Positions 4,539 through 43,060 of a stretch of DNA of 61,435 nucleotides are shown one piece after another. The DNA is from Desulfonatronovibrio magnus. GTDB taxonomy: Bacteria; Desulfobacterota; Desulfovibrionia; Desulfovibrionales; Desulfonatronovibrionaceae. Position 1 is the stretch's first letter. Each line of letters starts with the position of its first letter. The DNA is taken from positions 1 through 61,435 of the forward strand of contig NZ_KN882184.1 in NCBI RefSeq assembly GCF_000934755.1, in the 5' to 3' direction. Below the pieces are notes generated by a model, which saw only the letters and a list, made by a program, of their open reading frames with translations, was not told where the DNA came from and did not search any database. The position numbers and the translations under genes are program-made.

Positions 4539-4563
4539 GGGAGCATTACCGGTTTCTGAAAAC
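4539..4563 (+). repeat. Solo end of the MITE-like family
   Basis: GGGAGCATTACCGGTTTCTG followed by AAAAC matches the left terminal repeat of the complete elements at 27.5, 37.1 and 41.3 kb, with a single change in the GCG core. No partner end was found within several kb, so this is a remnant. Confidence 0.65.
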
Positions 4564-4660
4564 TGTAAATTTGATTAGTAACTTACCGTTCCAACCCTGT
4601 AATAAATAGCAAGAAAATTTTAATCACTGACAAGACCAATAAGGTCCAAAATCCGAATTC

Positions 4661-18688: not shown

Positions 18689-19017
18689 TGGCACAGCTTC
18701 CTGCCCGGAGGCTTACAGCCCGGAGGGGGACTGTCCCTCGCTGTCTAAATTTTTCCATTAAAACAAATCTCTACCAGGAACCAATGCAGTATCAATCTTT
18801 TTTATAGTACCTCGCGGGGACTGTCCCAATTTCCAAATATGGGACTGTTCTTCAAGGTGGAGGCGGCTTCCAGCCGCCTGGAATTAAATAGCCTGCAGGA
18901 TGCAGGCTCCACTTTAAAGACAGTTACTCACACGTTCGGTCCCGGTCCGCCTGGATGAAGAGCTTACAATTACTGAGTAGTGTTGAACTTTAACCTTTAA
19001 TCATAATTTATAAAAAT
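18689..19017. other. Repeat mosaic upstream of the glycosidase-like operon
   Basis: Holds a 'GGCACAGCTTCCTGCCCGGA' module shared in inverted form with 41.4 kb, two GGGACTGTCCC palindromes (18727-18737 and 18817-18827), and a paired hairpin module at 18857-18928 made of GGCGGCTTCCAGCCGCC and GCCTGCAGGATGCAGGC between GTGGAG and CTCCAC ends. The same module sits flipped at 27650-27702. No ribosome binding site is obvious before the next gene. Confidence 0.7.
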
Positions 19018-27077: not shown

Positions 27078-27179
27078 GATAACCCTCTCTTTGATTCTAA
27101 AACAGTCTCGGTTACGAAATTATTTATAGCTTCCATATAGAGCGTGGGAGCAATAACAGTTCCAGCCAGCCCTGGACCT
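27074..27179 (-). pseudogene. Possible 3' remnant of a second toxin gene
   Basis: An open frame of 34 codons following the RHH antitoxin without a start codon. It reads 'GTVIAPTLYMEAINNFVTE' and ends in TGA overlapping the next ATG. The 'IAP-LY-EA-N' pattern resembles the middle of some PIN toxins, which would be expected after a VapB-like gene. The call is tentative. Confidence 0.35.
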
Positions 27180-27372
27180 AATCTTTGCCATGCAGTCCCC
27201 AATGAACATCTTCCATTATCTGTTTTTCAATTATTTCAGGTTTATGTGTGTCAACAAACCTCCGTATGGCTTCAGAAATAATCTCATTTTCATCTCGAAA
27301 CCACCCTTCTTTGGCTATAAGTACGGCCTGCATATATAGCTTTTCAGGCACATCTACTGTGACTGTTTTCAT
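27178..27372 (-). CDS. RHH-type antitoxin (VapB-like)
   Basis: A 64-residue protein, 'MKTVTVDVPEKLYMQAVLIA' then 'GWFRDENEIISEAIRRFVDT', with the beta-strand and two helices of a ribbon-helix-helix DNA-binding protein. The start has an AAGGAGG site; a longer frame upstream overlaps repeat DNA and is unlikely. No intact toxin follows, so it is probably an orphan of a decayed module. Confidence 0.8.
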   Translation of the reverse strand: MKTVTVDVPEKLYMQAVLIAKEGWFRDENEIISEAIRRFVDTHKPEIIEKQIMEDVHWGLHGKD

Positions 27373-27401
27373 AGGTGATCCTCCTTTCTTGAGAGTTATA
27401 A

Positions 27402-27450
27402 GCGCTTCACCCGGGCAGACCGGGAGCAAACCTGCGAGTAACTTATCCCC
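27402..27450 (+). repeat. Dispersed repeat shared with 61246-61292
   Basis: Shares CACCCGGGC, CGGGA and CAAACCTGCGAGTAACTTA with the right end of the window. A degenerate third copy lies near 2895-2935. Confidence 0.65.
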
Positions 27451-27475
27451 CCCGGTCTCAGGCTTCAGGCGCTTG

Positions 27476-27626
27476 GGGAGCATTACGCGTTTTTGACAAC
27501 TGGAACCGAATTATAGTCTGCTGTAGCTACAGATGGATCAAACCCAGTAATGACGGATTAGCACGGGGACTGTCCCTGGCTTCGGGACTGTCCCCATCCT
27601 GGTTGTCAAAAACGCGTAATGCTCCC
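27476..27626. mobile_element. MITE-like element A with 8-bp target duplication
   Basis: A 151-bp element bounded by 25-bp perfect terminal inverted repeats (GGGAGCATTACGCGTTTTTG plus ACAAC at the left). GGCGCTTG is present directly outside both ends (27468-27475 and 27627-27634), an 8-bp target duplication. Inside are two GGGACTGTCCC palindromes. It has no coding capacity, so it must be moved by a transposase encoded elsewhere. It separates the decayed toxin-antitoxin genes from the methylase. Confidence 0.88.
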
Positions 27627-27649
27627 GGCGCTTGCACCTGCCTTGATAA

Positions 27650-27720
27650 GTGGAGCCTGCATCCTGCAGGCTATTAAAACAGGCGGCTGGAAGCCGCCTC
27701 CACATTGAAAGACAGTCACT
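27650..27720 (+). repeat. Paired-hairpin repeat, core flipped relative to 18857-18928
   Basis: GCCTGCATCCTGCAGGC and GGCGGCTGGAAGCCGCC hairpins between GTGGAG and CTCCAC ends. Compared with 18.86 kb the core is in opposite orientation while the flank AAAGACAGTCACT is in the same orientation. Next to it (27742-27770) lies a CCCAGGCTCCAGCCTGGG hairpin, and at 27854-27882 the CCAGGAACGAAGAACCAGG repeat. Confidence 0.75.
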
Positions 27721-27887
27721 ATTGAGTCTTATTTATACCCCTCGTTCCCAGGCTCCAGCCTGGGGGCGTTTTGCTCTTGCGGCTCCAGCCGCTTCTTCAA
27801 AATGTGGTTGTTGCCACAAATAAAGATGTACTTATTGACCTTATTGCCTGCAACCAGGAACGAAGAACCAGGAACTTTGAACCCTAT

Positions 27888-30800
27888 CTATATCCCCTCA
27901 TTGCGGATGCGGTTGGCGATGATTTCAGCCTTTTTTGCTTCTTCCTGGCGGCGACTGATAAGCATGTCATGAATATACTGAGCCATGGCCATAAGGTGCG
28001 GTCTGTGCTGGAAATATTTATCATCAAGGCTTGCCCGCATTTGAGCCATGACCGTTTTGGGCTCCTTGTCGTTCATAAGTTCCTGAACAGCCAGCAGAGC
28101 TTCCCCCAGCAGGGTATTGCCAATATCTCCGCCTGCAAGCTCCCTGGGGTTAAAGTCCATGGCTCCTTTGAGCTTTGATTTGTTGGGCTTTACCGAAGCC
28201 ATTAGGGGAGCATAATCCACATGAAAGGCCTTGGCAAAATTCTGGTAATTGTCCAGCTTGAACATGCCGGTCTGCTCAATGGCCAGCATGCGCAGATAAA
28301 ACCTTTCCAGGCCGGTTATCTTTTCCCATGTTTCCGGATTGATTTCCTTGAGCCGCTCCGGGATCAGCAGATTGTTGGCTATTTCTGATGAAAACTCAAC
28401 AATATCATCAATAACCGTACGCTTTCCTTTTTGTCTGGGCTGCATGGCCAGCCTGGTCACGTCCCGTCCATCAACTTCACTGTAATTGGTAAGCACCTTG
28501 AGAGCGGCAGCATAGCCGGCCATCTGCAGATCAGAATCATTGAATACTGCTTCGCCATGCCCCCTGGCTTCTTCATTGAGCCGCATCATGGAGTCAATCT
28601 GGTTTTGGACCTCTTTGCGTATTTTGGGCAGCAGGCGCTGTTTGAAACTGGATTTATCTTCCAGGCGCTTGCGAAGCACCAGGGTCACAGTGCCCTGGAC
28701 ATAAGCCCCGCTTTTCATAGCTGGACTCGTCTCAGTAGCAATATACCAGGCCCCTACCACTTTGAGTCCAACAGCCCAGAAAATGGAGACCATATCCGAC
28801 CATACCCCTGCATCCTGATGGGTAAACATAACGCATTGCAGGCCATTGTCAGGCATATGTTCGGTCATGGCCTGGTAAGCCTCCACCATGCTCTTGCGAA
28901 ATTCATCTCCGGTGCCCTTAATGGCCAGGGCCCGCCGCGAGTCCCAGGTCCACTCATCAAAAGGAGGAGGTGGATTCTTGCGCAGCCAGGCAATAAAGAA
29001 CTCTGTTATTTCGTGGTAGTTAATGGCATCGGCGTAAGGCGGGTCGGTAAGCCATATCTCGGAGTGTAAGGCGCATTGACTCGCTTCTTTTGAAGATATT
29101 ACTTTGGACAAATGTTCCATTGACTTCGTTCTATTATGGATATCCTTGGCCCCTACAAAGACTGGTGACCAGTAAAGCCAAGCCCGTACTCCATAGTTAT
29201 ATAACGGATTAAGTGTTTGATCAGAAAAGGTTTTGGAAATTTTTGGCAAACGTCCAGGTCCTGGGTATGTGTCTATTACACAAAGGCGGGTTCCATGTTG
29301 TAATCCATCTGATATAAAGCATAACACCTCTTTTTCATGGGAAGCGAATTGCTTATTGTGATTGATAAACTTTACTGATGCCAGAATTTGTCTGGCATTA
29401 AACAAATGATGCCAATACCGCCAACCACGCTCTCTGATGGGCTGTTCGTTGTTATAGCCTGGCTCAATGGCCATATCCGGAACCAGGCCCTGCTCCTGCC
29501 AGGTTGAGAGGTTTTGCTCAACAATCCTTTCCACCTGTCTTTCCCGGTCCAGGTCTTCTTCTGTCACTGACGCAAAATAGGTATCCTTACGATGCTGATC
29601 CAGAGTTTCTCTGGTGATCCACTGGATGCAATAAAGCCTTTCCTGGAAAATATCATCCGGCCGGGGCTTGAAATCATGCTTTCCCCATTGTCTAAGCTGA
29701 TTTTTGTTGTTGCCGTGTTCATCAGTGTAATCCCCACGAATGGTCCGGACAGGAGTGCGGTATGTTTTTCCATCCAGTTCGTATACCAGTTGGCTGTCCC
29801 GCACTGTTCCCTGCTCAGCCTTTGCCATTTCTTCATCTGTTGCCCCTGAGACTACTTTAATGTCAAAGCGCTTGTTCTCATAATCAGGTATCAGCTTCGC
29901 ATATACATTTTTGTTTTTGGAAATCACCCAGCTGGGAGCCATGGGCACCATCCACCCTGTTTCCGGGCGTCTGGTTTCTAAGCAGTACAGATAAGCCTTG
30001 GCCCGGTCGCCCCGGCTGTTGTGCTCTATTCCAAGTTCGGTAATTTCTCTGTCCACAGCCTGGGCAACTTCCTGCTGGGCCTTTTCAATTTCTGCCCTTT
30101 TTTCCGGCGAGGCCCCGATGATATTCAAAGCTCCCCAGGTGAGCATGCAGGCAACGGGGTTGAGGTCTGAAGCATAAACATCACAGCCCAGTCTGGCTGC
30201 CTCAAAAGGTATGCTCCCCCCACCACTAAAGACATCTCCTACTCTGGGTCTGTGTCCAAAACGCAGGATGCCCAGCTGCTCAACCAGTTCTTCATGGGAG
30301 AATGCTTCTATTCCCCAGTGGTCAAGATGATTGTTCACATTATCCCAGATGGGGCCATAAAGGATACCTGGATCGCATTCTTCGGGCCTTTTGCACAGCC
30401 TTACTTTTTCTTCATAAGGCAGACCTTTCAGAGCCATGGCCAGCAGCACATGCTTGCGCTCAGGGTCAATATTTCTTTTCCAGCGGATGGTCAGACCGGG
30501 ATGTTCCCCGGAATCAAAAGGGAAAACCATATTATCTACAGTTAGCTGGTACTGCTCATCATTCCGCTTGTTTGCGGGTATGGTATAGTCAAAATATTCC
30601 CAGGGTAAATCGGTCTCCACCTTGGAAGCAACCTCAACAGGTTTGATTTTTGGCTCCCTGCGGCCAAAAGAAGCGTCATCCATGGCCATGAGCTGCTCAA
30701 ATACGGATAGATCAGCCTGCGGATCATCTGTCACAGGAAGCAGGCAGCCCAGGATAATGGCCCTGGCCATAATCAACGGTTTGCGGCCTTTCCAGTAGGA

Positions 30801-30941
30801 GCCAAGCGCTGTCAAAGTCTGCCCGGCTCCGGCCTTTCTCTCTTTCTGGGCTTCAGCTGAAATCTTCTGGGCTGGAAAGACCTTTTCTATGAGGGTAGGG
30901 GCGTCTTGCAGGGCAAAAGGTGAGAGGTTGTTTTTTGTCAT
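27888..30941 (-). CDS. DUF1156 adenine-specific DNA methylase
   Basis: A 1017-residue protein of the DUF1156/COG1743 type, predicted to methylate adenine in DNA. The N-terminus carries DUF1156 ('IEKVFPAQKISAEAQKERKA'). The SAM-binding motif 'VFSGGGSIPFEAARLGCDVY' is near residue 238 and the catalytic motif 'LTDPPYADAINYHE' has D633-P-P-Y636, an order typical of amino-methyltransferases. In the helicase-methylase-ATPase locus it would mark self DNA or form part of an effector complex. A MITE and toxin-antitoxin debris separate it from the downstream XRE-helicase pair; a 583-bp repeat-rich gap separates it from DUF3780. Confidence 0.9.
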   Translation of the reverse strand: MTKNNLSPFALQDAPTLIEKVFPAQKISAEAQKERKAGAGQTLTALGSYWKGRKPLIMARAIILGCLLPVTDDPQADLSVFEQLMAMDDASFGRREPKIKPVEVASKVETDLPWEYFDYTIPANKRNDEQYQLTVDNMVFPFDSGEHPGLTIRWKRNIDPERKHVLLAMALKGLPYEEKVRLCKRPEECDPGILYGPIWDNVNNHLDHWGIEAFSHEELVEQLGILRFGHRPRVGDVFSGGGSIPFEAARLGCDVYASDLNPVACMLTWGALNIIGASPEKRAEIEKAQQEVAQAVDREITELGIEHNSRGDRAKAYLYCLETRRPETGWMVPMAPSWVISKNKNVYAKLIPDYENKRFDIKVVSGATDEEMAKAEQGTVRDSQLVYELDGKTYRTPVRTIRGDYTDEHGNNKNQLRQWGKHDFKPRPDDIFQERLYCIQWITRETLDQHRKDTYFASVTEEDLDRERQVERIVEQNLSTWQEQGLVPDMAIEPGYNNEQPIRERGWRYWHHLFNARQILASVKFINHNKQFASHEKEVLCFISDGLQHGTRLCVIDTYPGPGRLPKISKTFSDQTLNPLYNYGVRAWLYWSPVFVGAKDIHNRTKSMEHLSKVISSKEASQCALHSEIWLTDPPYADAINYHEITEFFIAWLRKNPPPPFDEWTWDSRRALAIKGTGDEFRKSMVEAYQAMTEHMPDNGLQCVMFTHQDAGVWSDMVSIFWAVGLKVVGAWYIATETSPAMKSGAYVQGTVTLVLRKRLEDKSSFKQRLLPKIRKEVQNQIDSMMRLNEEARGHGEAVFNDSDLQMAGYAAALKVLTNYSEVDGRDVTRLAMQPRQKGKRTVIDDIVEFSSEIANNLLIPERLKEINPETWEKITGLERFYLRMLAIEQTGMFKLDNYQNFAKAFHVDYAPLMASVKPNKSKLKGAMDFNPRELAGGDIGNTLLGEALLAVQELMNDKEPKTVMAQMRASLDDKYFQHRPHLMAMAQYIHDMLISRRQEEAKKAEIIANRIRNEGI

Positions 30942-31524
30942 GATGATGAAGATACCAGTTAAAAGTTATCAGTTAATTGTTATCAGTTGAAGAGTAAATG
31001 CACATGAATTGAGGCTGTCAGTGACTTACCCGTTAATTGCTGCAATAAAAAACAAGAAACCTTGAGACAAATGCGGGGATGGTCGCTTGGCATTGGGACT
31101 GTCCCTCGCAGGGAACTGATTCCAGATACATGCTTTGAGCCTGAGTAAGGACCAATTTCGGCACATCGAAATGTGAGTTGCGGGGACTGTCCCAGTTATG
31201 GTGCAGCTGTTTTTCTTAACACTTGGGTTGCGGGCAAGGCTCGGGCCAGGCCATAAATACGTCTGGATGTCTAAAGCTTAAAAAGCAAAATAAATTCGAG
31301 ATGTTGAGTAAAATTGTCTGGCCATCTAAGTAACTGGACAGTCAAAAGTTTTTTGTAACATTTTGTTTTTATTGTTTTTTTTTGGCACATCAAAATATAT
31401 TTTGGTCCAGACCAGGTATCTATCCAAATTTATTGACTTTATTTCTTACAACCAAGAACGAAGAACCAGGAACTTTGAACTCTCAAGTAAGTATGGGGCA
31501 AATATAAACTAATCTGCTACCAGT
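30942..31524. other. Repeat-rich gap between the methylase and DUF3780 genes
   Basis: No gene seen. It contains the block at 31023-31105 shared with 61151-61235 (CTTAC-CGTT-TTGCTGCAA, CAAGAAAC and GGCATTGGGACTGTCC), two GGGACTGTCCC palindromes near 31093 and 31183, and at 31390-31490 the repeat also found inverted at 4728-4805. The methylase may need its own promoter, but none is recognised. Confidence 0.65.
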
Positions 31525-32184
31525 TTACTTATTCTTGATTAAGTCCAAAAGCGACTGCTGTTTTTCCCTGGATTTAACCTGCGGCTTGTGCTCGCTTTTT
31601 ACCTGCCTGGGCTTGCGGATAATCTTATCCGGGCTGTATCCCAAAGCATGAACAAGGGCGGCTCTCCAGCCTTTGCCTTTATTCTCGGGTGCGCCGACAG
31701 ATTCAGCTGTCATGCCAAAAAGCCACCAGCGCTCTTCTGGTCTGAGTTCCAGCCAGTTTCTCAGGGCAATACCCACCTTCTCAATGGAAAGGTCTTCAAT
31801 AGCCCAGGCCAGTACGCAGAGTTCTTTGCCCAAAAGCCTGTCCACAGGGTTGTTTCCAACTTTCCAGTTGCTGATTGCCAGGTTGTTGGCTTTCAGACGC
31901 TGGTTGAACACTCTTTTGACCGGGTTGGCAATTTCTGTCCATAGCTGGCGGTTCATAATAACTCTGTCCAGCACCTGACTGTCTTCACCCAGGGCATGCA
32001 TGCCCAGGTCCTCAGTGATGTTCACTGCCTGGCGGCTGCCCCTGGGTATGGTGACAATGAAATGATGCGGCGAGGTGGTCACGGGAACGCCGAATCCAGT
32101 TGTCTTGTGTGCATACTTATCCGGCCTGCTGCGGTTTCCGGAATTGCCAGTCTTGCTGCTGTCAAGAGACTGCGCCGTGGACAT
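31525..32184 (-). CDS. DUF3780 protein of the defence locus
   Basis: A 219-residue soluble protein with 'TTGFGVPVTTSPHHFIVTIP' near the N-terminus, 'RVFNQRLKANNLAISNWKVG' and 'LRPEERWWLFGMTAESVGAP', features of DUF3780 proteins, which are found with DUF499 ATPases and DUF1156 methylases. The start codon follows the DUF499 stop immediately (TAAATG), so the pair is translationally coupled. The C-terminal 25 residues are lysine-rich. The molecular role is unknown; a nucleic-acid binding or adaptor role is a guess. Confidence 0.82.
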   Translation of the reverse strand: MSTAQSLDSSKTGNSGNRSRPDKYAHKTTGFGVPVTTSPHHFIVTIPRGSRQAVNITEDLGMHALGEDSQVLDRVIMNRQLWTEIANPVKRVFNQRLKANNLAISNWKVGNNPVDRLLGKELCVLAWAIEDLSIEKVGIALRNWLELRPEERWWLFGMTAESVGAPENKGKGWRAALVHALGYSPDKIIRKPRQVKSEHKPQVKSREKQQSLLDLIKNK

Positions 32185-35100
32185 TTATTGTTCAACCTTG
32201 TCTGGGGTAAGGTTTATGCCTGCAAGTTCGGCAAATTCCTTCAGGTCAAAACCGGTCCCAAAGCTTGCTCCATCCCGGATATTCATTTGCACAAGAGCGT
32301 CGGATTCACCCAGGCTGTCCCGCAGGCTGCTGATCACTTTGCCCAGCATCTGAGGGTTGACTGTGCGGTCATTAAAGCGGACCTGCACTGCTGATTCTCC
32401 TTCACCCACATAGAGAATAACGCCCTGAAAAGAAATATCCTGCCTGTCCCTGAAGCGGGTTATCAGATCAAAAACCTTGTCAGTGCTATCCAGACGTACT
32501 TTCTGACTGACAAGTCTGGCAGGCTTTTCATCTTTGATTTCAGGCCTTTCCTGCCCTCTGGAAGCTATGGTAAAAGTATGCTGAGCAGAGGCTTCTCCAG
32601 CAGTTGCCCGGACCTGTAGCAGTACTTTGTCATCAGGAATGGCGAACATGTCTTGATATACTATGCCTTCTCTGGGATTGGTGCCGTCTAAGGTGTAGCG
32701 GATTTCATCAGCCAGGGGGATTGTTTTAAGTTCCACCTGCCTGTGATCAGGGGTCTCCCGGACCTGGTGCTTAATCTTTATTTCCGCCACCCAGCGCACA
32801 GGCTCCCCGCTTTCATGTTCTCCTGTTGTGTCCACAACCTTGAAATACACGGTAGGATAATCTGTGCGAAAGGTTTCCAGGTCTTCCACAACATGATCTG
32901 ATTCAGACACCTGCGGTTTTGTGGAATAGTAGACCCTGGGAGAAGGGCCTGCGTCTTTGGGGTTCAGGGTAAGCTGAGCTTCACCAGTCTTTTCATCAAT
33001 GCTTTGCCTGACGATGTTCAAGCTGGTTTTGCTTTTGGGGAACGGCCCTTTTTCAATATATCCATCTGTACCCTCTCTCCATCTTCCCTGGGCAACTGCC
33101 TGGTCCTTGAGTTTTTCCAGCCCCTTCATGCCGGGCAGCCAGGGCCAGGCAGGGTTGCTTTTGGCCCGCATCAGGATATCCCGCCAGGGAGTTCTTCTGT
33201 CGCTGGTGGGCCACAAATCATTTTCAGCCATGGAAAAATAAGGAATGGGGTCTTCTAAGGCGTCCAGAGCCAGCTTGTTGTCGCAGCGCATGCTGGCCAG
33301 CATTTTTTCAATCTGCTTTTCAACATTATTTTCCACATCAGGCCGGAAGTTCAGACCGTTTTCAATGGTTGCCGCCTGCAGTCCGTCTTCTCCTGGATAG
33401 TAAAGTCTGTTGAATGCACCCTGCAGGGCCTGGATAAAAGACTCCTCGTTTTGTTCTTTCATTTCCCGGGCTTGCTCAAACAGGGGATCTCCAGGTCTGA
33501 TGGATTTCAGAATACGCTCCACTGCGTAAAGTTCCCTGAGGGTTTCTTCAACACGACCTGCCATGTGAGTGTCATTGCCTGAAAGAACCAGAAGATGATT
33601 TTTTTCTGCAAGTGAGCGGTAAAAGCGTTCAATATCTTCCGGCGGGATACGGTTGTCCGGGGGAACAACCACCAGGACCCGGCAGGAACTCAAGCTTATA
33701 TCACCAATCTCCGGCATCACCAAAACCTGCTGGTAAGCCAGACGTGAATCAGCATCAAGTTCAGCCTCAAGCCGGTTTTTCAGGGCTTTTTCCACTTTGC
33801 CCCTGGCCAGTGAGGCTGCTTCCTTCTGGACCCGTTTGATGAGGTTTTCAGTGTCTTTAAAGAAAAAGAGATCGCCTTCTGAATGCAGGTACCAGGCACT
33901 TTTGCGCACAAAATCAAAGGCTCTGGCAAATTCTTCCGGCTTTCTGTTGGGCGCAGCCAGGTACTCAATGACTTCTTCCCGGCGCAGACCCATGTGCCCT
34001 CTAACCGCCAGAGAAAGGGAAGCTGACAGAATCATTGCCGCCACCTGGCTGCCAGCGTCACTGTTCAGCTCAGCGTCAACAAGTTCGGCATGGGCATTGC
34101 CGTTGTCTGCAATATCTTTTGCAACAGCTGATGTAAGGGCTCGATTGATATTGGAAATTTCATTGGCCACCAGCTTGTCATTGAGGTTCAGGTGCTGTGT
34201 GCCAATGAGATAGACATCATTGCCGGGACGCAGCCATACAGATCTAATGGCCCGGGCTGCAAACTGAAGCAGGCCGCGGGTTTCTCGAAAATCCGGGTTG
34301 TCCCTGAAAAGGGCTACAAGATGTTTGAAAGAAGGGTGGAAAGGATAAGTACTTCGAACTTCCTCAGCCACCTGCTCTAAGCTCCTGGCGGTCAGGTAAC
34401 CGCTGTCTTCAGCAGCCTTGATCTGGTCGGCATAAGCTTCAGCTACCTCATCAATATCCTGTATAGACGGCAGATCTGCAAAAAGACGTTTCTTGAGGAT
34501 TTCGTAAATTTCGTTGCCTTCCATGGAAACCGGAGTAATGATGCGGGCCTGACGGCGTACTTCACGGTGCACATCAGCCACAAGCCTGCGGATTTCCTTG
34601 ACCTGGTCCCGGTATGTGTCAGTCAGATTGGCCAGGACAATGCAGCAGCGTGGAAGTTCCATGGCAGCCATAAACAGATTTGAAAGAGCTCTGGTCAGAA
34701 CATCGGCCAGTGTGCCCCTGCCCACTGAAACTGTCCGGGCCTCAAGAAAATAGGGAGGTAGTTCATCAAATAGAAGAAGTGCAGGCTGATCTCCAATGAT
34801 ACTTTTCCAATCCTCTTTGCCTGGGGCTTTGGGGCCGTGCTCCCAGAAGGGACGCATAGCATCCTCCTTGCCAAGCTGTTCAGCAAGTTCCCCCCAGAGA
34901 TAATGGTCAGGACTGTTGCGTCCGTCAAAAACAGCTACCCTGGCAGGCTGACCATCCAATCTTTCCAAGACATCCAGAGGCACAACTGATGAGCGCAGGT
35001 CAGGATATTTGGCCGTAAGCCCAAGTGCAGCCATAAGATGAGATTTACCACCTCCCATGGCCTGGGCAAGTTCATAAACAGCCTGACCTGACTGTCCCGC

Positions 35101-35283
35101 AAGCCTGAGCAGTCCCTGAGCCAGAAGATCTTCCATGCCGGCAGTCATATAGCTTCTGGCAAAAAAATCCCGACCTTTATCAGAAGAATGAATGATCTGG
35201 AGCAGGTTTTCAACTCCACCGGAAACCTGGTATTCAAGGGTTGACTCGTGAAGGGTACAGGCGTCTTTGACGGTTTTGAGCAT
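32185..35283 (-). CDS. DUF499 ATPase of the defence locus
   Basis: A 1032-residue protein, first gene of the locus. It has a Walker A motif in 'AQAMGGGKSHLMAALGL' (residues about 73-89) and a probable Walker B, 'ALLLFDELPPYFLEAR', near 170, placing it with DUF499 AAA-type ATPases. The remaining 650 residues contain a large helical region and several C-terminal beta-rich modules ('VVDTTGEHESGEPVRWVAEI', 'YVGEGESAVQVRFND'). It is expected to couple ATP hydrolysis to DNA sensing or remodelling with the methylase and helicase. It overlaps nothing upstream, and the intergenic region before it probably holds the promoter of the locus. Confidence 0.9.
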   Translation of the reverse strand: MLKTVKDACTLHESTLEYQVSGGVENLLQIIHSSDKGRDFFARSYMTAGMEDLLAQGLLRLAGQSGQAVYELAQAMGGGKSHLMAALGLTAKYPDLRSSVVPLDVLERLDGQPARVAVFDGRNSPDHYLWGELAEQLGKEDAMRPFWEHGPKAPGKEDWKSIIGDQPALLLFDELPPYFLEARTVSVGRGTLADVLTRALSNLFMAAMELPRCCIVLANLTDTYRDQVKEIRRLVADVHREVRRQARIITPVSMEGNEIYEILKKRLFADLPSIQDIDEVAEAYADQIKAAEDSGYLTARSLEQVAEEVRSTYPFHPSFKHLVALFRDNPDFRETRGLLQFAARAIRSVWLRPGNDVYLIGTQHLNLNDKLVANEISNINRALTSAVAKDIADNGNAHAELVDAELNSDAGSQVAAMILSASLSLAVRGHMGLRREEVIEYLAAPNRKPEEFARAFDFVRKSAWYLHSEGDLFFFKDTENLIKRVQKEAASLARGKVEKALKNRLEAELDADSRLAYQQVLVMPEIGDISLSSCRVLVVVPPDNRIPPEDIERFYRSLAEKNHLLVLSGNDTHMAGRVEETLRELYAVERILKSIRPGDPLFEQAREMKEQNEESFIQALQGAFNRLYYPGEDGLQAATIENGLNFRPDVENNVEKQIEKMLASMRCDNKLALDALEDPIPYFSMAENDLWPTSDRRTPWRDILMRAKSNPAWPWLPGMKGLEKLKDQAVAQGRWREGTDGYIEKGPFPKSKTSLNIVRQSIDEKTGEAQLTLNPKDAGPSPRVYYSTKPQVSESDHVVEDLETFRTDYPTVYFKVVDTTGEHESGEPVRWVAEIKIKHQVRETPDHRQVELKTIPLADEIRYTLDGTNPREGIVYQDMFAIPDDKVLLQVRATAGEASAQHTFTIASRGQERPEIKDEKPARLVSQKVRLDSTDKVFDLITRFRDRQDISFQGVILYVGEGESAVQVRFNDRTVNPQMLGKVISSLRDSLGESDALVQMNIRDGASFGTGFDLKEFAELAGINLTPDKVEQ

Positions 35284-35406
35284 TATGTCACCTCGAAGAA
35301 AGTAAAAAAAGGTAGAATATGGCAGTAGCCGGTTTTATGCCATCAAAAGTACATGCTTGCAACAGCAATGATTCAGAGCGGATATGATTTCACCTGTTAT
35401 GCAGGG

Positions 35407-35568
35407 CTACATAATCTTTCCGAGCAGATAATAAGTTAAGACGCCCGCTCCCAGCGAGCCGTATATGAACAGTCAGGGCAGGCAGTTTGTTCCCTTCTTC
35501 CAGAGCAGAAGGCCAAAGACCGAAGCACCGGCCAGGATGGAAAGAATCAATTGTAGTCCAAAGGTCAT
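35407..35568 (-). pseudogene. Small two-helix membrane protein frame interrupted by TGA
   Basis: The frame starts MTFGLQLILSILAGASVFGL, continues to 'KKGTNCLP', meets TGA after 31 codons, and then goes on in the same frame with a second hydrophobic helix 'LFIYGSLGAGVLTYYLLGKI' to TAG at codon 54. This looks like a nonsense mutation in a small hydrophobic protein. Selenocysteine insertion is conceivable but no clear SECIS hairpin is seen just after the TGA. Family unknown. Confidence 0.4.
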
Positions 35569-35793
35569 GTTCAGCTCTCAGCAAATATAATTTATTTAGA
35601 AAGGCAGGTATAAGATTGTTGAGAATTTTGCATACATCAGGAATGATTTTCAGACAAGAAGAAATTGTAGAGGACTATTGTGGGGCTTAGGGGATTGGGG
35701 CATGGATGAGGGAAAGATATGCCAAAACCGACCTGATCAGGACCAGCGACGAAGTTAAACCATTTTTAAGAGCAATGTAGAGCTGAAAAAGCG

Positions 35794-35823
35794 CTTGGAA
35801 TAATATGCTTGTTGTTTGCCATG
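35794..35823 (-). pseudogene. 5' fragment of a DUF4143 ATPase gene
   Basis: Reads 'MANNKHIIPS' and then loses similarity and soon stops. It matches the start of the ATPase gene at 42762-42791 with about two differences in 30 bp, so it is debris from a third copy or from recombination. Confidence 0.6.
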
Positions 35824-35865
35824 CTTTTCCCGTGCCCGGTTTATCAGGCATTTTACGATGTACGG

Positions 35866-35895
35866 AGGCCACCCTTTTTGAAGGGGTGGCCTTTT
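35866..35895 (+). terminator. Intrinsic terminator
   Basis: AGGCCACCC and GGGTGGCCT form a 9-bp perfect stem around a 9-nt loop, followed by TTTT on the plus strand. The following GTGGTATGGGA segment is conserved after three genes or gene remnants (23.36, 35.89 and 39.99 kb). Confidence 0.75.
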
Positions 35896-35914
35896 GTGTG
35901 GTATGGGAAGAGAA

Positions 35915-36931
35915 TTAGTTGTCGGTAATCTTTCGGACTTGATCAGTGAATTGTTCCATGGTTTCTGCTCTCAATGAGTAGTCAAAGAGGGCGTCCAGAA
36001 TCTCTAATGATTGTATTGTTTTTATGCGATTAACTATTTCAGGCTGCAGGATTCCAAACTTGGAGTTGACCAGTTTGAAGATTGAGTCTCTTGCTTTTTT
36101 GGTTTCACCTCTCTGTTCTCCAACCCCCTCCCAGTAAGGTCTCCTTGATTGCTCAACCCTTTTTTCAATTTCTTGCATTGCTACTCCTACCATATCCTTA
36201 CCTCCTGGAAATCGTCTGGTATGCTCAGTTACCTGCTCCTCACTCAAGGAGCCGGACGCCAGTACGTATTTCAAAATATTAAACAGATATTCTTTTCTTT
36301 TATCCTCATCAGGCAACTGTTCAAGTAAGTCAAATATTTCCTGCAGCTTTATGTCCAGTTCAGGGAAGTGAATGTACTTAAAGAGCAGGTGAAATATTTC
36401 CATAAGGATAGAGGTTTTGAAAGCCTCGTCTCCCATATGGGTTATGTCATGCAGTAAATGCCTGAACTTAGGAATAAAAACCCTGAATGACTCATGGGGG
36501 ATATCAAAATAATCTTCAAAGTTGTGGCTGAAGTTCCACTTACTTATACCATGATAGATAATCACGGGAATGACTATAGGCAAGTAACCTGCCAGCTTGT
36601 TACGTCTGTACAGGTTCATCCATTTCTGGACCGAATAGTGAAGAGCTTGAAGCAGTGCGTATCTATCCAAGTAGCTTTTATGTTCAAACAGAAAATAGAG
36701 CTCTACCATCTCGTCGCTGTTTTTTAGCCGAACCCTGACAACCACGTCAGTAAGAAATTCTTTGAACTCTTCAGCTACAAACCCGCTGATATCAATTTCT
36801 ATTACTGACAGATCTAAGTAGGCCTTGATTTCATCCGGTATGTAATATTTGATGAAATCTCGGACCAGCTCTTCATCCTGGAAAAAGGTCTTGAAGCCTA
36901 CATCGTGTGGGGATGGAATTTCAAATGACAT
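35915..36931 (-). CDS. Rpn family recombination-promoting nuclease / putative transposase
   Basis: A 338-residue protein of the Rpn/PDDEXK_2 family. The N-terminus 'IPSPHDVGFKTFFQDEELVR' and 'FKEFLTDVVVRVRLKNSD' followed by 'VELYFLFEHKSYLDRYALLQ' give the D and E-x-K residues of a PD-(D/E)xK nuclease. Family members (RpnA-E) cut DNA and raise recombination; they occur in many near-identical genomic copies. The start at MSFEIPSP is chosen because the longer upstream frame is hydrophobic and repeat-derived. A remnant of a second copy lies at the end of the helicase gene. The C-terminal third is helical and variable. Confidence 0.88.
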   Translation of the reverse strand: MSFEIPSPHDVGFKTFFQDEELVRDFIKYYIPDEIKAYLDLSVIEIDISGFVAEEFKEFLTDVVVRVRLKNSDEMVELYFLFEHKSYLDRYALLQALHYSVQKWMNLYRRNKLAGYLPIVIPVIIYHGISKWNFSHNFEDYFDIPHESFRVFIPKFRHLLHDITHMGDEAFKTSILMEIFHLLFKYIHFPELDIKLQEIFDLLEQLPDEDKRKEYLFNILKYVLASGSLSEEQVTEHTRRFPGGKDMVGVAMQEIEKRVEQSRRPYWEGVGEQRGETKKARDSIFKLVNSKFGILQPEIVNRIKTIQSLEILDALFDYSLRAETMEQFTDQVRKITDN

Positions 36932-37072
36932 AGTGGTCTTAAAACATTGTAAGAGGATTATATACGTGCATAGGTACAAATGTAGTATGGTTTTAAGGAG
37001 CAGGCAAGAGAAAAATGAAAGGCCCAGACTACGAACGAGCAAGTCTCTTCATGGAATTGAGAGGAATTTAGG

Positions 37073-37204
37073 GGAGCATTACGCGTTTCTGAAAACTTTA
37101 ATTTTGAGTTGAATGTCATAGCTATTTTTAATGTTAAAACCCGATTGTGTCGGCTTAGCACGGGGACTGTCCCTCATTGACTTTTCAGAAACGCGTAATG
37201 CTCC
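37073..37204. mobile_element. MITE-like element B
   Basis: 132 bp bounded by 23-bp inverted repeats (GGAGCATTACGCGTTTCTGA plus AAA on the left, the reverse complement on the right) with one GGGACTGTCCC palindrome inside (37163-37173). No target duplication is visible; the right side adjoins sequence that looks recombined, at the end of the BON gene. Confidence 0.8.
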
Positions 37205-37241
37205 TGAACCATCAGCCCCTGGAGGGCCCCGCAACCCAACC

Positions 37242-37649
37242 TTAAGAATAGCTTAGCAGGTCAGGCAATGCCGGCAGGGCCAGGGCAGTTGCCCTGCCCA
37301 CATGCTCAGGAGATTCCACACTCCCGGTAAGAGTTACCCTGCCTTCTGAAGTTGAAGCGGAAATATCAAACACTGACAACTCAGAATCGGAAGCCAGCCT
37401 GGCTTCAACAGTTGCAGTTATGCGCACATCGTCTGCGGTATCAAGGGCTTCATCACTTACCTCTCGGGCTTTGCGTCTCACTACTTCGCCCTGTTCAGCC
37501 AGTTCCTGCTGGATATCTTCAGCCCGCAGTTCCAGGGCTTCCATTTTTGCTTCCAGACCATCATCCTCAGGCTGCTCTGTGATCAGGAACAGAATCGCTC
37601 CAGCCCCGATAATAACGCCAATAAGCAAAAAAATAATACTTTTCATCAT
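37242..37649 (-). CDS. Membrane-anchored BON-domain protein with altered C-terminus
   Basis: A 135-residue protein: N-terminal membrane anchor ('IIFLLIGVIIGAGAILFLIT'), a charged coiled-coil linker (about 28-70) and a BON domain ('VRITATVEARLASDSELSVF', 'GRVTLTGSVESPEHVGRATA'). BON domains bind membranes or other envelope components. The domain stops short: the last residues, 'ALPALPDLLS', are encoded by 30 bp nearly identical to the 3' end of the ATPase gene at 40.05 kb, in the same frame. So the C-terminus appears truncated and replaced by recombination. GGAGG precedes an ATGATG start. Confidence 0.78.
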   Translation of the reverse strand: MMKSIIFLLIGVIIGAGAILFLITEQPEDDGLEAKMEALELRAEDIQQELAEQGEVVRRKAREVSDEALDTADDVRITATVEARLASDSELSVFDISASTSEGRVTLTGSVESPEHVGRATALALPALPDLLSYS

Positions 37650-37678
37650 ATTCCTCCATTATTTACAGATTATTGAAC

Positions 37679-39325
37679 TCAAAAAAACTTCACTGCAATC
37701 CAGACCAGGACCCCTGCAAAAAACGCATAGCCGGCTCCAATGAGCGCGTTATTTCTGATGACAAGGCCTTCCTTACCCAGAAGACCGACTGTAGTAAGCA
37801 CAGCCACCACATTATGCACGCAGATCATGTTGCCGGCAGCGCCTCCAACAGCCTGCAGGGCCAGAACAGGCTGTACCAGAAGTCCGCTTTGCACTGCTGT
37901 ATTGTGCTGCAGAACACCGAACATTATATTTGAGACTGTATTACTGCCTGAAATGAATGTCCCCAGAGCGCCCACCAGAGGAGCCAGAAAATACCAGTTT
38001 GCCCCTGCTATGTCCGAAGCTGCCCGGGCGACAACAAGAAGCATGCCTTCTCTGCCGTCAGTGCCCCCTGAATTCATCATAATATAGACCATAAGCAGGG
38101 CTGAAACCAGGGCAACTGTTGCTGAACCTACCATTGATCCTGTCTTTTTGACTGCGCCAAAAGCCTCCTGCCATTTCATTTTCTGCATCAGGGGAATACA
38201 AAGGGCCAAAAGCGCAAAAGGTATGATACCCGGATTATATAATGGTGAGATATCAACGCTTATTCCTGTTCCCAGAATGTTGTCCCAGCCTGGATTCCAC
38301 TGCTGCAGCCAGCTTGAAAGATTAATCTGCTCCAGCCTGGTTATGAGAAGCAGAAGGCCCACTAATATATAAGGCAGCCAGGCCATCCACCCGCTCATGT
38401 CCCTACGGTCATCAGGAGCTCCTGTACCGGCCTTGATTTTTCCTTCCCAGTAAGAAGGCCATGAGCTCTTTTCCGGAAAATTCCAGTCTTTTCGCGGCAG
38501 CAAAAAACCTTTAGAAAGCGCAAACAAAAATATGGGCAGACCTATGAGAGCCCCCAGAAGCGCGGGCAGCTCCGGCCCTGTTAAAACAGCGATTAAAAGT
38601 TGAGGGATCGTAAACACGGCGCCGGCAAACAATGCCAGAGGCCATATTTCACGTCCTTTTTTTATTGATCCTTCAGCAATTGCGGTCATGAGGCAGACAA
38701 CTATCAGGGGCATAAAAATGCCCAGCACAAGATGAAGCATGGCCACCTGGACGGAGATATCATGCAGAAATGCGCTGAAGCTTACTGACTCAGGAAGCGA
38801 AACCACATCCCTCAATGCTTCAAATCCCCCATGAATGGGCACCCCCACTGCTCCGAAAGATACTGCCACGCTGTTTGCAACAAGAGTAACAACAGCAGCT
38901 ATAAACGGCGGGAAACCCATACCCACCAGTAGTGGAGCGGCTACAGCGGCCGGCGTTCCAAAACCTGCGGCTCCTTCCAGGAAAGAGCCGAAAAGCCAGG
39001 CAATAATCAGTACCTGAACTCTGCGGTCTCTGGATACTGAAGCCATGGAAGAAGAAATCCCGCCCATTCCTCCGCTTTTTTTCATGAGCTGGAGAATTAG
39101 AATGGCACCAAATACGATGAGCAGAATATCCACTGCATTCACCAGCCCGGCCAGGCTTGCGGCAATAAGCTGAGCCAGGGGCACCTGCCACACGGCAACA
39201 GCTATAACCGCCGCCACAAGCAGGCCCACAGGCATGGCCCTGCTTGAAGGCCACATGAATCCCACCATCAAAATACCTACAACCACTATGGGCGCTATGG
39301 CCAGCAGCGGCATGATTATATCCAT
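37679..39325 (-). CDS. lctP: L-lactate permease
   Basis: A 548-residue integral membrane protein of the LctP family with about 12-14 helices, importing lactate (and possibly glycolate) with protons or sodium. Family blocks are 'FGSFLEGAAGFGTPAAVAAP' near residue 112, 'FGAVGVPIHGGFEAL' and the C-terminal 'LVGALGTFISGSNTVSNIMF' and 'AVGGAAGNMICVHNVVAVLT'. Lactate is a main electron donor of many sulfate reducers. The gene lies between the BON gene and a repeat-filled gap; lactate dehydrogenase and PEP synthase are encoded 15-20 kb away. No membrane topology break or frameshift is seen. Confidence 0.95.
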   Translation of the reverse strand: MDIIMPLLAIAPIVVVGILMVGFMWPSSRAMPVGLLVAAVIAVAVWQVPLAQLIAASLAGLVNAVDILLIVFGAILILQLMKKSGGMGGISSSMASVSRDRRVQVLIIAWLFGSFLEGAAGFGTPAAVAAPLLVGMGFPPFIAAVVTLVANSVAVSFGAVGVPIHGGFEALRDVVSLPESVSFSAFLHDISVQVAMLHLVLGIFMPLIVVCLMTAIAEGSIKKGREIWPLALFAGAVFTIPQLLIAVLTGPELPALLGALIGLPIFLFALSKGFLLPRKDWNFPEKSSWPSYWEGKIKAGTGAPDDRRDMSGWMAWLPYILVGLLLLITRLEQINLSSWLQQWNPGWDNILGTGISVDISPLYNPGIIPFALLALCIPLMQKMKWQEAFGAVKKTGSMVGSATVALVSALLMVYIMMNSGGTDGREGMLLVVARAASDIAGANWYFLAPLVGALGTFISGSNTVSNIMFGVLQHNTAVQSGLLVQPVLALQAVGGAAGNMICVHNVVAVLTTVGLLGKEGLVIRNNALIGAGYAFFAGVLVWIAVKFF

Positions 39326-39597
39326 GAACCTTTCCTTTCACAGCTGTTCATTAGTGGCTTACTCCTGAAACCCTGCCTGTCCCGTTAAACAACGCCCCGC
39401 GTTCCTGCTTTGCTGGGTTTAACTGGGGTCACAAAAAACAAGAAAGTTATGAACCACAAAGGCACGAATGACACAAAGTCTCTAAAAGCAAGGAGTCCTG
39501 TCTTGCTTGGCGATCTTTGCGCCTTTGCGTGAGAATGATCTCTTGGGTTGCAGGCAAAGCCAGATTAGTTGTAACAGTTTAGTTGTGCCATTTGCAT

Positions 39598-39657
39598 GTT
39601 GCACAAGGACTGTCCCCTGCTTCGGAACTGTCCCCGATTATTTCTAAAAAAATGCCC
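39598..39657. repeat. Decayed right half of a MITE-like element
   Basis: GGACTGTCCCCTGCTTCGG and AACTGTCCCC, then a degenerate terminal repeat ending ATGCTCCCC. The interior order is the same as in element A. No left end is seen. Confidence 0.6.
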
Positions 39658-39807
39658 TATGCTCCCCTTAATACTTACTTCATCTGGAAAAATGTATTGA
39701 TACTGCCCGGAAAACCCTGGCATGCTGATATTATCCAAAAATCCGGAGCCGCAGTTTAAAGTATGGTGTTCCCAAAAATCATGGCAATAAGTATAATCCT
39801 GTATTTA

Positions 39808-39943
39808 AAGATTTCCCTGCAAAAAGTCAGGAAATGAGCGACTCGGCAAAAAGTATCTTCATAACTCTTTGTTTTTACTGTCTCCTGTCTCCTGTCTCCT
39901 GACTCCTGCGACTGCAAAAAAGGATTTTTGCAGTCGAATCTTT
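39808..39943 (+). repeat. About 150-bp dispersed repeat with terminal hairpin, copy 2
   Basis: Same orientation as 5309-5475 but lacking its central GC-rich hairpin; it has CTGTCTC repeated three times instead. It ends with the same GACTGCAAAAA/TTTTTGCAGTC stem-loop. Confidence 0.8.
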
Positions 39944-40032
39944 AAAATAGTTTCCAGCCGGAAATTCCGGATGCTTTTCTCCTTTGGTGCGGGGTGGCCT
40001 TTTGTGTGGTATGGGAAGGGAGTTAAGAGATT

Positions 40033-41184
40033 CTATTCTGTCCTGCTCTGGCTTAGCAGGTCGGGCAATGCCGGCAGGGCCTGGTCAAGAGGGATAATTT
40101 CAATGCCCGGCAGGTGGCGGCGATGAGGTCCGCCATAGAACATATAGGCTCTGGCCATGGGATAGTCCCGAGCAAAAGCCCGCAGGCCTTTGATGTCATG
40201 GTTTCTGATGGCCCCTGCCCGTTTGACTTCAATGCCGATGAGGCCTTTTTCTCCGTAGAGTATCAAATCCACTTCCTGATTTTCAGGTGTTCTCCAGTAA
40301 TACAGGTCATATCCCAGCCCCAGATTGTCGTTGACCGCTCTGATCTCCTGGAAGACCAGGGTTTCCAGGGCAGCGCCGTCAATCTCCTCGGGCCGGTCAA
40401 GAGGCCCCTTGGGGCGCAGTGTCCGGAATACCCCGGCGTCAAAGAAGAAGAATTTGGGATGTGCGGACATACGCCGCCTGCTCTTCCGGGTGAACACCGG
40501 CAAACGCCAGGCCAGCAGAAGGTCTTCCAGGATATGGAAATAGCCTTCCACTACCTTGCGGTTGACCTCGCACTCCCTGGCCACCTGGGAAATATTCAGT
40601 ACCGAGGCCTGGGAAAGGCTGGCCGCTTCCAGGAACCGGGCAAAGGCCTGCAGGTTGCGGACCAGACCCTCCTGCTGGACTTCTTCGCGAATGTAGGTGT
40701 GTACGTAGGCGGACAGATAGTCGGCTGGATTCTGTTCGGTGCAGGCGGCCGGCAAATGACCGCGGGTAAGGGCCTGATCCAGGGAAAAATCCGGACCAAG
40801 CTCAACAGCCGTAAGAGGATGCATGGACCTGGTCACAGCCCGGCCGGCCAGGAGGTTGACCCCCCTGGAGCGCAGTTTCCTGGCGCTGGAACCGGTGAGG
40901 ATGAACTTAAGTCCCTGGTTTTCGATTAATTGGTGCACAGTGTTCAACAGTTCCGGTACGCGCTGCACCTCATCAATGACCACCCAGCCATCATAACCGG
41001 GGGGAATGAATTCAATCAGGCGATAGGGGCCTGCCAGCAGGGAGGTATAGTGTCTGGAATCCAGCAAATCGACATATACTGAGTCTGGATACTCGGCCCT
41101 GACCCAGGTGGATTTGCCAGTACCCCGGGGTCCGAACAGGAAAAAGCTTTTCTTGGCAGGTTGATTCAGTATTCTGGAGTACAT
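40033..41184 (-). CDS. AAA ATPase with DUF4143 domain (copy 1)
   Basis: A 383-residue protein: N-terminal AAA ATPase with Walker A 'FLFGPRGTGKSTW', Walker B 'WVVIDEVQRVPELL' and sensor 'FILTGSSARKLR', and a C-terminal DUF4143 domain with a restriction-nuclease-like core, 'QEVDLILYGEKGLIGIEVKR' (D, E-x-K). Such proteins are common, recombine often and are of unknown function, possibly DNA-handling. A TTG six codons upstream is an alternative start. The 3' end is duplicated at the end of the BON gene, and the downstream flank is shared with the Rpn genes. It is 37% or so similar by eye to its neighbour copy 2 in the motif regions, a rough impression only. Confidence 0.85.
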   Translation of the reverse strand: MYSRILNQPAKKSFFLFGPRGTGKSTWVRAEYPDSVYVDLLDSRHYTSLLAGPYRLIEFIPPGYDGWVVIDEVQRVPELLNTVHQLIENQGLKFILTGSSARKLRSRGVNLLAGRAVTRSMHPLTAVELGPDFSLDQALTRGHLPAACTEQNPADYLSAYVHTYIREEVQQEGLVRNLQAFARFLEAASLSQASVLNISQVARECEVNRKVVEGYFHILEDLLLAWRLPVFTRKSRRRMSAHPKFFFFDAGVFRTLRPKGPLDRPEEIDGAALETLVFQEIRAVNDNLGLGYDLYYWRTPENQEVDLILYGEKGLIGIEVKRAGAIRNHDIKGLRAFARDYPMARAYMFYGGPHRRHLPGIEIIPLDQALPALPDLLSQSRTE

Positions 41185-41335
41185 GATTCCATTTTTCAGC
41201 AAAAATTGGAGTTGTCAAGTTAATTTTTACAGCTCCAGCTGAGAATTTATGTCTGTTGAACCCGCTGCAATCCGTTTAAACGCTTCGGACAGGTCCGTAT
41301 GATCAATCAGTTTCACTCGGGCCGCCAATGGTCAT

Positions 41336-41519
41336 GGGAGCATTACGAGTTTTTTGAAAATGGATGGGGACAGTCCCGAAGCCAGGGACAGTCCCCCTCC
41401 GGACTGTAAGCCTCCGGGCAGGAAGCCGTGCCATGCCGTAGTTTATAGCTTTTCACACAAAAAGATAGCCTTAACACACCCTATTCATATTTTGTTTTCA
41501 AAAAACTCGTAATGCTCCC
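41336..41519. mobile_element. MITE-like element C with 9-bp target duplication
   Basis: 184 bp with 25-bp perfect inverted repeats (GGGAGCATTACGAGTTTTTT plus GAAAA at the left). AATGGTCAT flanks both ends exactly (41327-41335 and 41520-41528). The interior includes two copies of GGGACAGTCCC-type palindromes in the opposite orientation to element A and the GCAGGAAGCCGTGCC module also seen at 5.0 and 18.7 kb. It sits between the two ATPase genes. Confidence 0.92.
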
Positions 41520-41602
41520 AATGGTCATTCATGGCAAAAATGAACTCACAAGTTTAATCAGTCGGCTGCTAAATCTATTCAGTCAAATGAAAACTTACGG
41601 GA

Positions 41603-42897: not shown

Positions 42898-42918
42898 GGA
42901 GCATTACGCGTTTCTGAA
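42898..42918 (+). repeat. Solo MITE end
   Basis: GGAGCATTACGCGTTTCTGA matches the left end of element B. No right end is found before the transporter gene, but an 11-bp direct repeat ATACGGACTTG lies on either side at 42883-42893 and 43063-43073. Confidence 0.65.
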
Positions 42919-43060
42919 AGCTGCAAACATGAAATCGCATTGAGCGCGAAGCGTCCGGAAAAAAACTTTCCACTCCGCTCATAACTCGGTTTGTTATTTG
43001 ATCTCCAGGCTGAGTCATTATGAATCATTTCCTCTTGATCAGCCTTTTATTATCGGGCTT

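What the first reader, a model, noticed from the sequence alone, without database searches (positions are those of the whole stretch)
27468..41528. MITE-like family with long terminal repeats and 8-9 bp target duplications
Elements at 27476-27626 and 41336-41519 have 25-bp perfect inverted ends starting GGGAGCATTACG and exact flanking duplications (GGCGCTTG and AATGGTCAT). A third copy (37073-37204) and remnants at 4539, 39598 and 42898 belong to the same family. They have no coding capacity and look recently active; I do not recognise the family.
Basis: seen in the sequence. Interest (0 to 1): 0.65.

Follow-up and report, generated by a model that had tools for sequence, protein, structure and literature searches.

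The report
Orphan MITE family of ISKra4-type transposons
The repeats are small, gene-less mobile DNA pieces scattered through this bacterium's genome, and their ends match those of a larger jumping gene found in related bacteria, so they are a new family of a well-known kind of element.

Summary
Elements at 27476-27626 (151 bp) and 41336-41519 (184 bp) have perfect 25-bp inverted ends and exact 8- and 9-bp target duplications. The genome holds 99 exact copies of GGGAGCATTACG against 1 for the reversed control. In the stretches read, 55 elements have both ends; 35 of 55 carry an 8-9 bp duplication (24 exact), against a mean of 0.7 with shuffled flanks. One MITE sits inside another with a 9-bp duplication, giving a base-exact empty site.

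The likely parent is an ISKra4-family (Mutator superfamily) insertion sequence. A Desulfobacterota genome, found by transposase protein rather than by ends, has three copies of a 2.4-kb IS starting GGGAGCATTACGCGTTTCT. Two of three have 8-bp duplications, and the transposase stop codon lies inside the right end. That IS also carries a DruA/DUF4338 gene. No ISKra4 transposase was found in the window's own genome, so its MITEs look orphaned.

A new MITE family of a known kind. More interesting in passing: DruA domains recur beside or fused to transposases of five families.

The parts
27468..27475 (.). left target-site duplication GGCGCTTG
27476..27626 (.). full MITE copy, 151 bp, 25-bp perfect terminal inverted repeats (TIR type GCGTTTTTGACAA)
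   Evidence: 99% identical copy at G000:C42:4006-4156; RNA fold z -9.5
27565..27595 (.). internal hairpin GGGGACTGTCCCTGGCTTCGGGACTGTCCCC, motif shared with a second repeat family
27627..27634 (.). right target-site duplication GGCGCTTG
37072..37205 (.). third MITE copy, 134 bp, slightly decayed ends, no duplication found
   Evidence: 93% identical to L060 7007-7139
41327..41335 (.). left target-site duplication AATGGTCAT
41336..41519 (.). full MITE copy, 184 bp, 25-bp perfect TIRs (type GAGTTTTTTGAAAA)
   Evidence: 97% identical copy at G000:C128:34265-34446; RNA fold z -9.6
41366..41396 (.). internal hairpin with two GGGACAGTCCC motifs
41520..41528 (.). right target-site duplication AATGGTCAT
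4539..4580 (.). remnant: one MITE end, 90% to L060 4062-4228
39594..39666 (.). remnant: one end plus internal hairpin, 77% to L071 3902-4052
42898..42933 (.). remnant: one MITE end, 89% to L060 4062-4228

Best explanation
These are non-autonomous MITEs that were mobilised in trans by a DDE transposase of the ISKra4 family (prokaryotic Mutator-like, p-MULT 4). The transposase recognises the shared ends GGGAGCATTACG(C/A)GTTT(C/T)T and joins both ends to the two strands of a target 8-9 bp apart, so repair leaves an 8-9 bp duplication. Shown here: ends, duplications, an exact nested empty site, and an ISKra4-type IS in other Desulfobacterota with the same ends and 8-bp duplications. Inferred: that this transposase or a close relative moved the MITEs in this genome, and that the enzyme has since been lost, lies in unassembled sequence, or arrives from outside. 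The interior is unrelated to the IS genes; much of it is a hairpin module shared with a second, larger repeat family. Whether transposition goes through a circular intermediate, as reported or suggested for relatives (PMC3942029, section 11), was not tested.
For: 99 exact 12-mer copies versus control 1. 35 of 55 elements with 8-9 bp duplications (24 exact, 11 with one mismatch, 20 none) versus shuffled mean 0.7, maximum 5 in 200. Nested insertion with 9-bp duplication GTCCCGAAG, whose joined empty site aligns 56/62 to the 41336 copy. ISKra4 IS in G468, found by protein similarity and not by its ends: 3 copies, left end GGGAGCATTACGCGTTTCT, right end GGGTGCATTACGCGTTTCTA, 8-bp duplications in 2 of 3. 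Over those 19 left-end bases the MITE ends match 19/19 (37072 type), 18/19 (27476) and 17/19 (41336). Its transposase scores 246.7 bits against a cut-off of 205 for NF033572; D224, D300 and E414 are invariant in 9 of 9 aligned transposases. L235 has both ends around a DruA gene plus an ISKra4 gene. L218 and L157 have the same end at the 3' end of the transposase gene, and L249 has it about 270 bp upstream of the matched start. A sister IS in G385, ends GGGAGCATTCGC, has an 8-bp duplication ACCATAGA. A variant end GGGAGCGTTACATC closes an ISKra4-type gene fragment in G035, same order. A transposase relic (74-76% over ~42 aa) lies in G006, a MITE-bearing genome of the same family.
Against: No ISKra4 transposase was found in the window's own genome in four searches (one search had no positive control). 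Intact ISKra4 elements with these ends were found only outside the order; intact ISKra4 genes inside it (G022) lack them. IS and MITE share only the ends; the interiors are unrelated. The third G468 copy shows no duplication, nor does L235. 20 of 55 MITEs have no detectable duplication. The 16-base end pattern is expected about 120 times by chance in the 257-Gb collection and 116 stretches were found, so single scattered hits mean nothing; only paired ends or ends at a transposase gene count. The single-end stretches were searched for ISKra4 and DruA proteins only, not for transposases of other families.
Confidence: 0.88

Rival explanations
1. The MITEs belong to another IS family with 8-9 bp duplications (IS66, ISAs1, IS1595, IS256, IS903-like).
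For: Several such families duplicate 8-9 bp (recalled). The own genome does carry an IS66 transposase with a DruA gene.
Against: No end with up to 2 mismatches to GGGAGCATTACG lies in the 2.4 kb held around the own IS66/DruA locus. The ends occur at ISKra4 genes in G468 (3 copies), L235, L218, L157 and L249. Of the end pairs 500-4500 bp apart, those in L235 and L157 span ISKra4 sequence; the ORFs between the pairs in L209 and L248 showed no transposase to my eye. Other single-end stretches were not scanned for other families.
Confidence: 0.07
2. REP/BIME-type extragenic palindromes mobilised by a Y1 (RAYT) transposase, not DDE MITEs.
For: Strong hairpins (z about -9.5). 48 of 55 carry at least one GGGACTGTCCC, a motif with 594 genome copies.
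Against: Target duplications in 35 of 55 and an exact nested insertion need staggered integration. Y1 transposition leaves no duplication (recalled knowledge).
Confidence: 0.02
3. Dead relics: the family amplified long ago and no longer moves.
For: No transposase found in this genome. Many single or decayed ends; 20 of 55 lack a duplication.
Against: Nearest pairs are 98-99% identical, 25-bp ends are perfect in many copies, and nested insertions exist. This rival concerns timing, not identity.
Confidence: 0.4

Closest known systems
ISKra4 family (p-MULT 4, Mutator superfamily; Guerillot et al. 2014, PMC3942029: abstract, passages and sections 11-12 read)
   Same: IRs of 18-39 bp and 8 or 9 bp duplications; the partner IS encodes a transposase over the NF033572 cut-off.
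   Different: MITEs carry no transposase. The paper says four ISKra4 elements carry extra genes of unknown function; its main text does not contain DUF4338. Promoter targeting reported for 13 ISs was not seen here.
Nezha MITE of cyanobacteria (seen only as a citation in PMC10969869 and a mention in PMC3733652; not read)
   Same: A bacterial MITE.
   Different: Its parent and ends were not compared here; a link to this family is not claimed.
REP/RAYT palindromes (recalled)
   Same: Short, mostly intergenic, strong stem.
   Different: Here there are 8-9 bp duplications and TIRs.

Membership tests
MITE | short (<600 bp) with terminal inverted repeats | tested here: met
   sizes 113-222 bp (search limited to 100-260 bp), peaks 151-153 (23 of 55) and 180-184 (22 of 55); 25-bp ends
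MITE | no coding capacity | tested here: met
   longest ATG ORF 52 aa, median 29, n = 55
MITE | target-site duplication | tested here: met
   35 of 55 with 8-9 bp, 24 exact; nested empty site
MITE | multi-copy | tested here: met
   99 exact 12-mers; 55 paired elements in the stretches read
MITE with a resident autonomous partner (not required of a MITE) | autonomous partner with the same ends in the same genome | tested here: not met
   no ISKra4 in G000; partner found only in other genomes; assembly 97.5% complete
ISKra4-mobilised element | ends like those of an ISKra4-family IS | tested here: met
   17-19 of the 19 outer bases match the G468 IS left end, by MITE type
ISKra4-mobilised element | 8 or 9 bp duplications as in p-MULT elements | tested here: met
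ISKra4-mobilised element | transposase shown to act on the MITE ends | not testable with these tools
   needs a bench assay
ISKra4 (the partner IS) | transposase over family cut-off with DDE residues | tested here: met
   246.7 bits against cut-off 205; D224, D300, E414 invariant in 9 of 9
promoter-targeting subgroup of ISKra4 | -35 box about 16 bp outside the end | tested here: not met
   no enrichment at offsets 10-25 in 108 flanks; simple consensus scan only

The most novel reading that the evidence does not exclude
The DruA/DUF4338 protein carried by the parent IS is a general transposition accessory of bacterial transposons rather than primarily an anti-phage protein. It recurs beside ISKra4 and IS66 transposases and fused to ISAs1, IS701 and IS4/Tn5-type ones. 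It may act on transposon DNA as a Mom/GNAT-like modifier, with Druantia's DruA recruited from transposons.
Probability: 0.25. Interest if true: 0.75.

Novelty: new member of a known kind. Interest (0 to 1): 0.38.

Why it matters
It assigns an unrecognised bacterial MITE family to a transposase family and gives a clean trans-mobilisation test: a defined IS in other genomes, orphan MITEs in this one. In passing it shows DruA domains as recurrent partners or fusions of unrelated DDE transposases, which could bear on where the Druantia defence protein came from.

Tried and rejected
Own-genome search for a transposase with ISKra4 queries: nothing in four searches. The ISKra4 loci of the relatives found (L274-L303) were checked for the MITE end: no paired ends. 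G006 C355 (L277) and G009 (L276) have no match within 2 mismatches; G022 has one unpaired 2-mismatch match (L298); G035 has GGGAGCGTTACATC at the end of its transposase fragment. Promoter targeting: no enrichment. Empty sites in relatives: G005 and G012 align beside the 41336 element but not across the intergenic DNA, so no base-exact empty site; the nested insertion served instead. In the nested case L109 the direct repeat lies 7 bases off the junction and is not counted. Rfam: no match in the window. Viral contigs: 8 end-pattern stretches, none of which matched the L235 transposase or DruA; a separate scan with the G468 transposase confirmed no relative. Plasmids: weak ISKra4/ISLre2-like relatives only, none covering 80% of the query; DruA in 2 records. 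Structure of the DruA protein: two models of mean pLDDT 52 and 49, too poor, so no fold search was made. PDB sequence search with the DruA profile: one hit at E 0.17, not meaningful. In alignment A1 one row (L363:981-1898) was a wrong ORF, an AAA protein; it was dropped in A2.

Literature searches: ISKra4; DUF4338 + transposase (38); Nezha + miniature inverted-repeat (51); DruA + Druantia + transposon (52); MITE + ISKra4 (61); Desulfonatronospira + transposase (62); DUF4338 (66); the end sequence (85, one unrelated paper); MITE/Mutator/sulfate-reducing (86); DruA/Mom/GNAT/transposase (93). None of the titles and abstract starts listed showed this MITE family or a DruA-transposase link; lists were capped at 10-20 rows and the papers behind them were not opened, with four exceptions: PMC3942029 (abstract, passages, sections 11 and 12) and PMC10853773, PMC10969869, PMC3733652 (passages only).

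Full report
OBSERVATION. Both principal elements are exactly as described: 25-base perfect inverted ends and exact duplications of 8 bases (27476-27626) and 9 bases (41336-41519). The third copy is 37072-37205 with slightly decayed ends. The three remnants match other copies over 36-73 bases.

GENOME-WIDE. The window is the first part of contig C123 of a 4.81-Mb, 134-contig genome, 97.5% complete. GGGAGCATTACG occurs there 99 times, against 1 for the reversed pattern. I took stretches around the hits and, with the window, examined 61 sources for paired ends 100-260 bp apart with at most 3 mismatches in all. This gave 57 pairs, 55 after removing overlapping pairs. Sizes cluster at 151-153 (23) and 180-184 bp (22). 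17 have an exact 8-base duplication, 7 an exact 9-base one, 11 an 8-9 base one with one mismatch, and 20 none. Shuffling right flanks among elements gives on average 0.7 and at most 5 in 200 shuffles. At 80% identity 44 of 55 join one cluster, and the closest pairs reach 98-99%. The duplications show only a weak preference (T at position 2, A at the next-to-last). 3 of 51 insertions with enough flank fall inside a gene-like ORF of the rejoined site, against 370 of 492 random positions; this uses a simple codon-usage score, not a gene caller.

PROOF OF INSERTION. In L066 (G000:C42) a 151-bp copy sits inside another MITE and is flanked by GTCCCGAAG on both sides. Leaving out the copy and one duplication gives a sequence aligning 56 of 62 bases across the junction to the window's 41336 copy. 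A second copy at L066 13820-13971 lies within what looks like an older member, with TCTCCGGG duplicated.

STRUCTURE. Both window copies fold into a ~29-pair stem carrying a GC-rich inner hairpin, z = -9.5 and -9.6. The inner GGGACTGTCCC motif is present in 48 of 55 copies. It is not specific to the MITEs: 594 copies lie in the genome (reversed control 7), and the 24 pairs I read stand 88-91 bp apart in direct orientation inside a second repeat family. The MITEs appear to have captured a piece of it (inference).

FINDING THE PARENT. The pattern GGGAGCATTACGNGTTT occurs in 8 of 150 related genomes, the own genome included. In the collection of 84,980 species genomes it hits 116 stretches, about what chance gives for 16 fixed bases (about 120 with equal base frequencies). 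So I counted only hits with paired ends or at a transposase. In one search, 23 of the 116 have paired ends within 500 bp (at most 5 mismatches in all); 22 of these 23 are in records labelled Desulfovibrionales, Desulfonatronum, Desulfonatronospira, Desulfonatronovibrio, Desulfobacteraceae or Desulfobulbaceae, and the exception (L153, labelled Actinomycetota) is probably a misbinned contig. tblastn of the L235 proteins against the loci then held (L001-L273 and the window) found ISKra4 transposase sequence in four: L235, L218, L157 and L249. In each the end lies at the border of the gene. L235 has both ends 2307 bp apart around a DruA-domain gene and a frameshifted ISKra4 gene, without a duplication. 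In L218 and L235 the end closes 7 bases after the ORF, in L157 it is at the C-terminal end, and in L249 it is about 270 bp upstream of the matched start. The other single-end stretches were not scanned for transposases of other families.

INDEPENDENT CHECK. A protein search with the L218 transposase in 395 genomes of the phylum hit 20. The best, G468, is a single-contig genome with three copies whose frames are open over 486-489 aa. Each is bounded by GGGAGCATTACGCGTTTCTAAAAAAA and GGGTGCATTACGCGTTTCTAGAAAGA, 2406-2415 bp long, with 8-base duplications ATATAATC and TATTCGTG in two copies and none in the third. The transposase stop codon is inside the right end (GCG-TAA-TGCACCC). The left end matches the MITE ends at 19/19 outer bases for the 37072 type, 18/19 for 27476 and 17/19 for 41336. 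The transposase scores 246.7 bits on NF033572 (cut-off 205) and also matches the ISLre2 and ISH6 models below their cut-offs. The second gene is a DruA protein (105.6 bits, cut-off 27) with no PADLOC match, whereas the DruA of the G009 ISKra4 element matches PADLOC DruA weakly. A more distant IS in G385 has ends GGGAGCATTCGC and duplication ACCATAGA. An alternative extension GTTTGTCC is shared by IS ends in L218, L157 and L249 and MITE-like ends in L167 and L254.

OWN GENOME. Four searches find no ISKra4 transposase there. In three of the four the same query found it in other genomes; one search looked only at the own genome. A relic 74-76% identical over about 42 residues lies near a contig end of G006, a genome of the same family with 15 pattern hits. 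In the same order, G035 has a transposase fragment ending in GGGAGCGTTACATC. By matching positions and contig lengths I take G006 to be the record labelled Desulfonatronospira sp. CSSed11_143 and the genus-mate G003 the one labelled Desulfonatronovibrio sp. CSSed10_311R1 (inference).

COMPARISON. Guerillot et al. 2014 report 18-39 bp ends and 8 or 9 bp duplications for the prokaryotic Mutator-like families, and four ISKra4 elements with extra genes of unknown function (PMC3942029, section 11). Both fit. They also report insertion upstream of promoters for some ISKra4 members with near-perfect ends (section 12); in 108 flanks I see no enrichment.

SIDE LEAD. DruA homologues lie next to IS66 transposases (own genome L367, L364, L365, L377, also L256 and L418) and fused to ISAs1 (L369, L371), IS701 (L368) and IS4/Tn5-type (L370; three places in G009) transposases. 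L365 and L377 pass Pfam's IS66 cut-off but not NCBIfam's. Of the 9 DruA proteins scanned, 7 have Mom as second Pfam match (E from 0.0003 to 0.13, all below cut-off); the L368 fusion reaches E 4.1e-6, 27.0 against cut-off 27.1. PMC10853773 calls DUF4338 a GNAT domain (passage). This is a lead, not a result: no structure could be modelled.

VERDICT. A real MITE family, not found in the literature searches listed, of a known kind, with its transposase family identified at about 0.88.

Noticed in passing
L367 (G000:C48), L235, L335, L276, L364, L365, L368-L371, L377, L256, L418: DruA/DUF4338 proteins sit beside ISKra4 and IS66 transposases and are fused in frame to ISAs1, IS701 and IS4/Tn5-type transposases; several are multi-copy in G009.
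   Followed up: partly
window 18727-18827 and 31095-31193; G000 genome-wide: A second repeat family: GGGACTGTCCC occurs 594 times (control 7); 24 pairs read stand about 90 bp apart in direct orientation, many with a coding-like left part and an AGGCGGCTTCCAGCCGCCT palindrome nearby.
   Followed up: partly
window 27178-27483: The mechanical ORF's ATG lies inside the left end of the 27476 MITE, so the element may have altered the 5' end of this small gene; a later start is also possible.
   Followed up: no
L153 (record labelled Actinomycetota): A MITE copy with 25 of 26 matching end bases and a 9-bp duplication in a contig of an unrelated phylum; probably misbinned, otherwise horizontal transfer.
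   Followed up: no
L102 3907-4058 (G000:C1:98406): One MITE lies inside a long gene-like ORF that reads through once the element is left out; the gene was not identified.
   Followed up: no
own-genome elements: Left and right ends often agree with each other within a copy even where copies differ from each other (GCGTTTTTGACAA, GAGTTTTTTGAAAA, GCGTTTCTGACAA), whereas the G468 IS ends are imperfect; this may mean selection for the stem or a hairpin-copying step.
   Followed up: no
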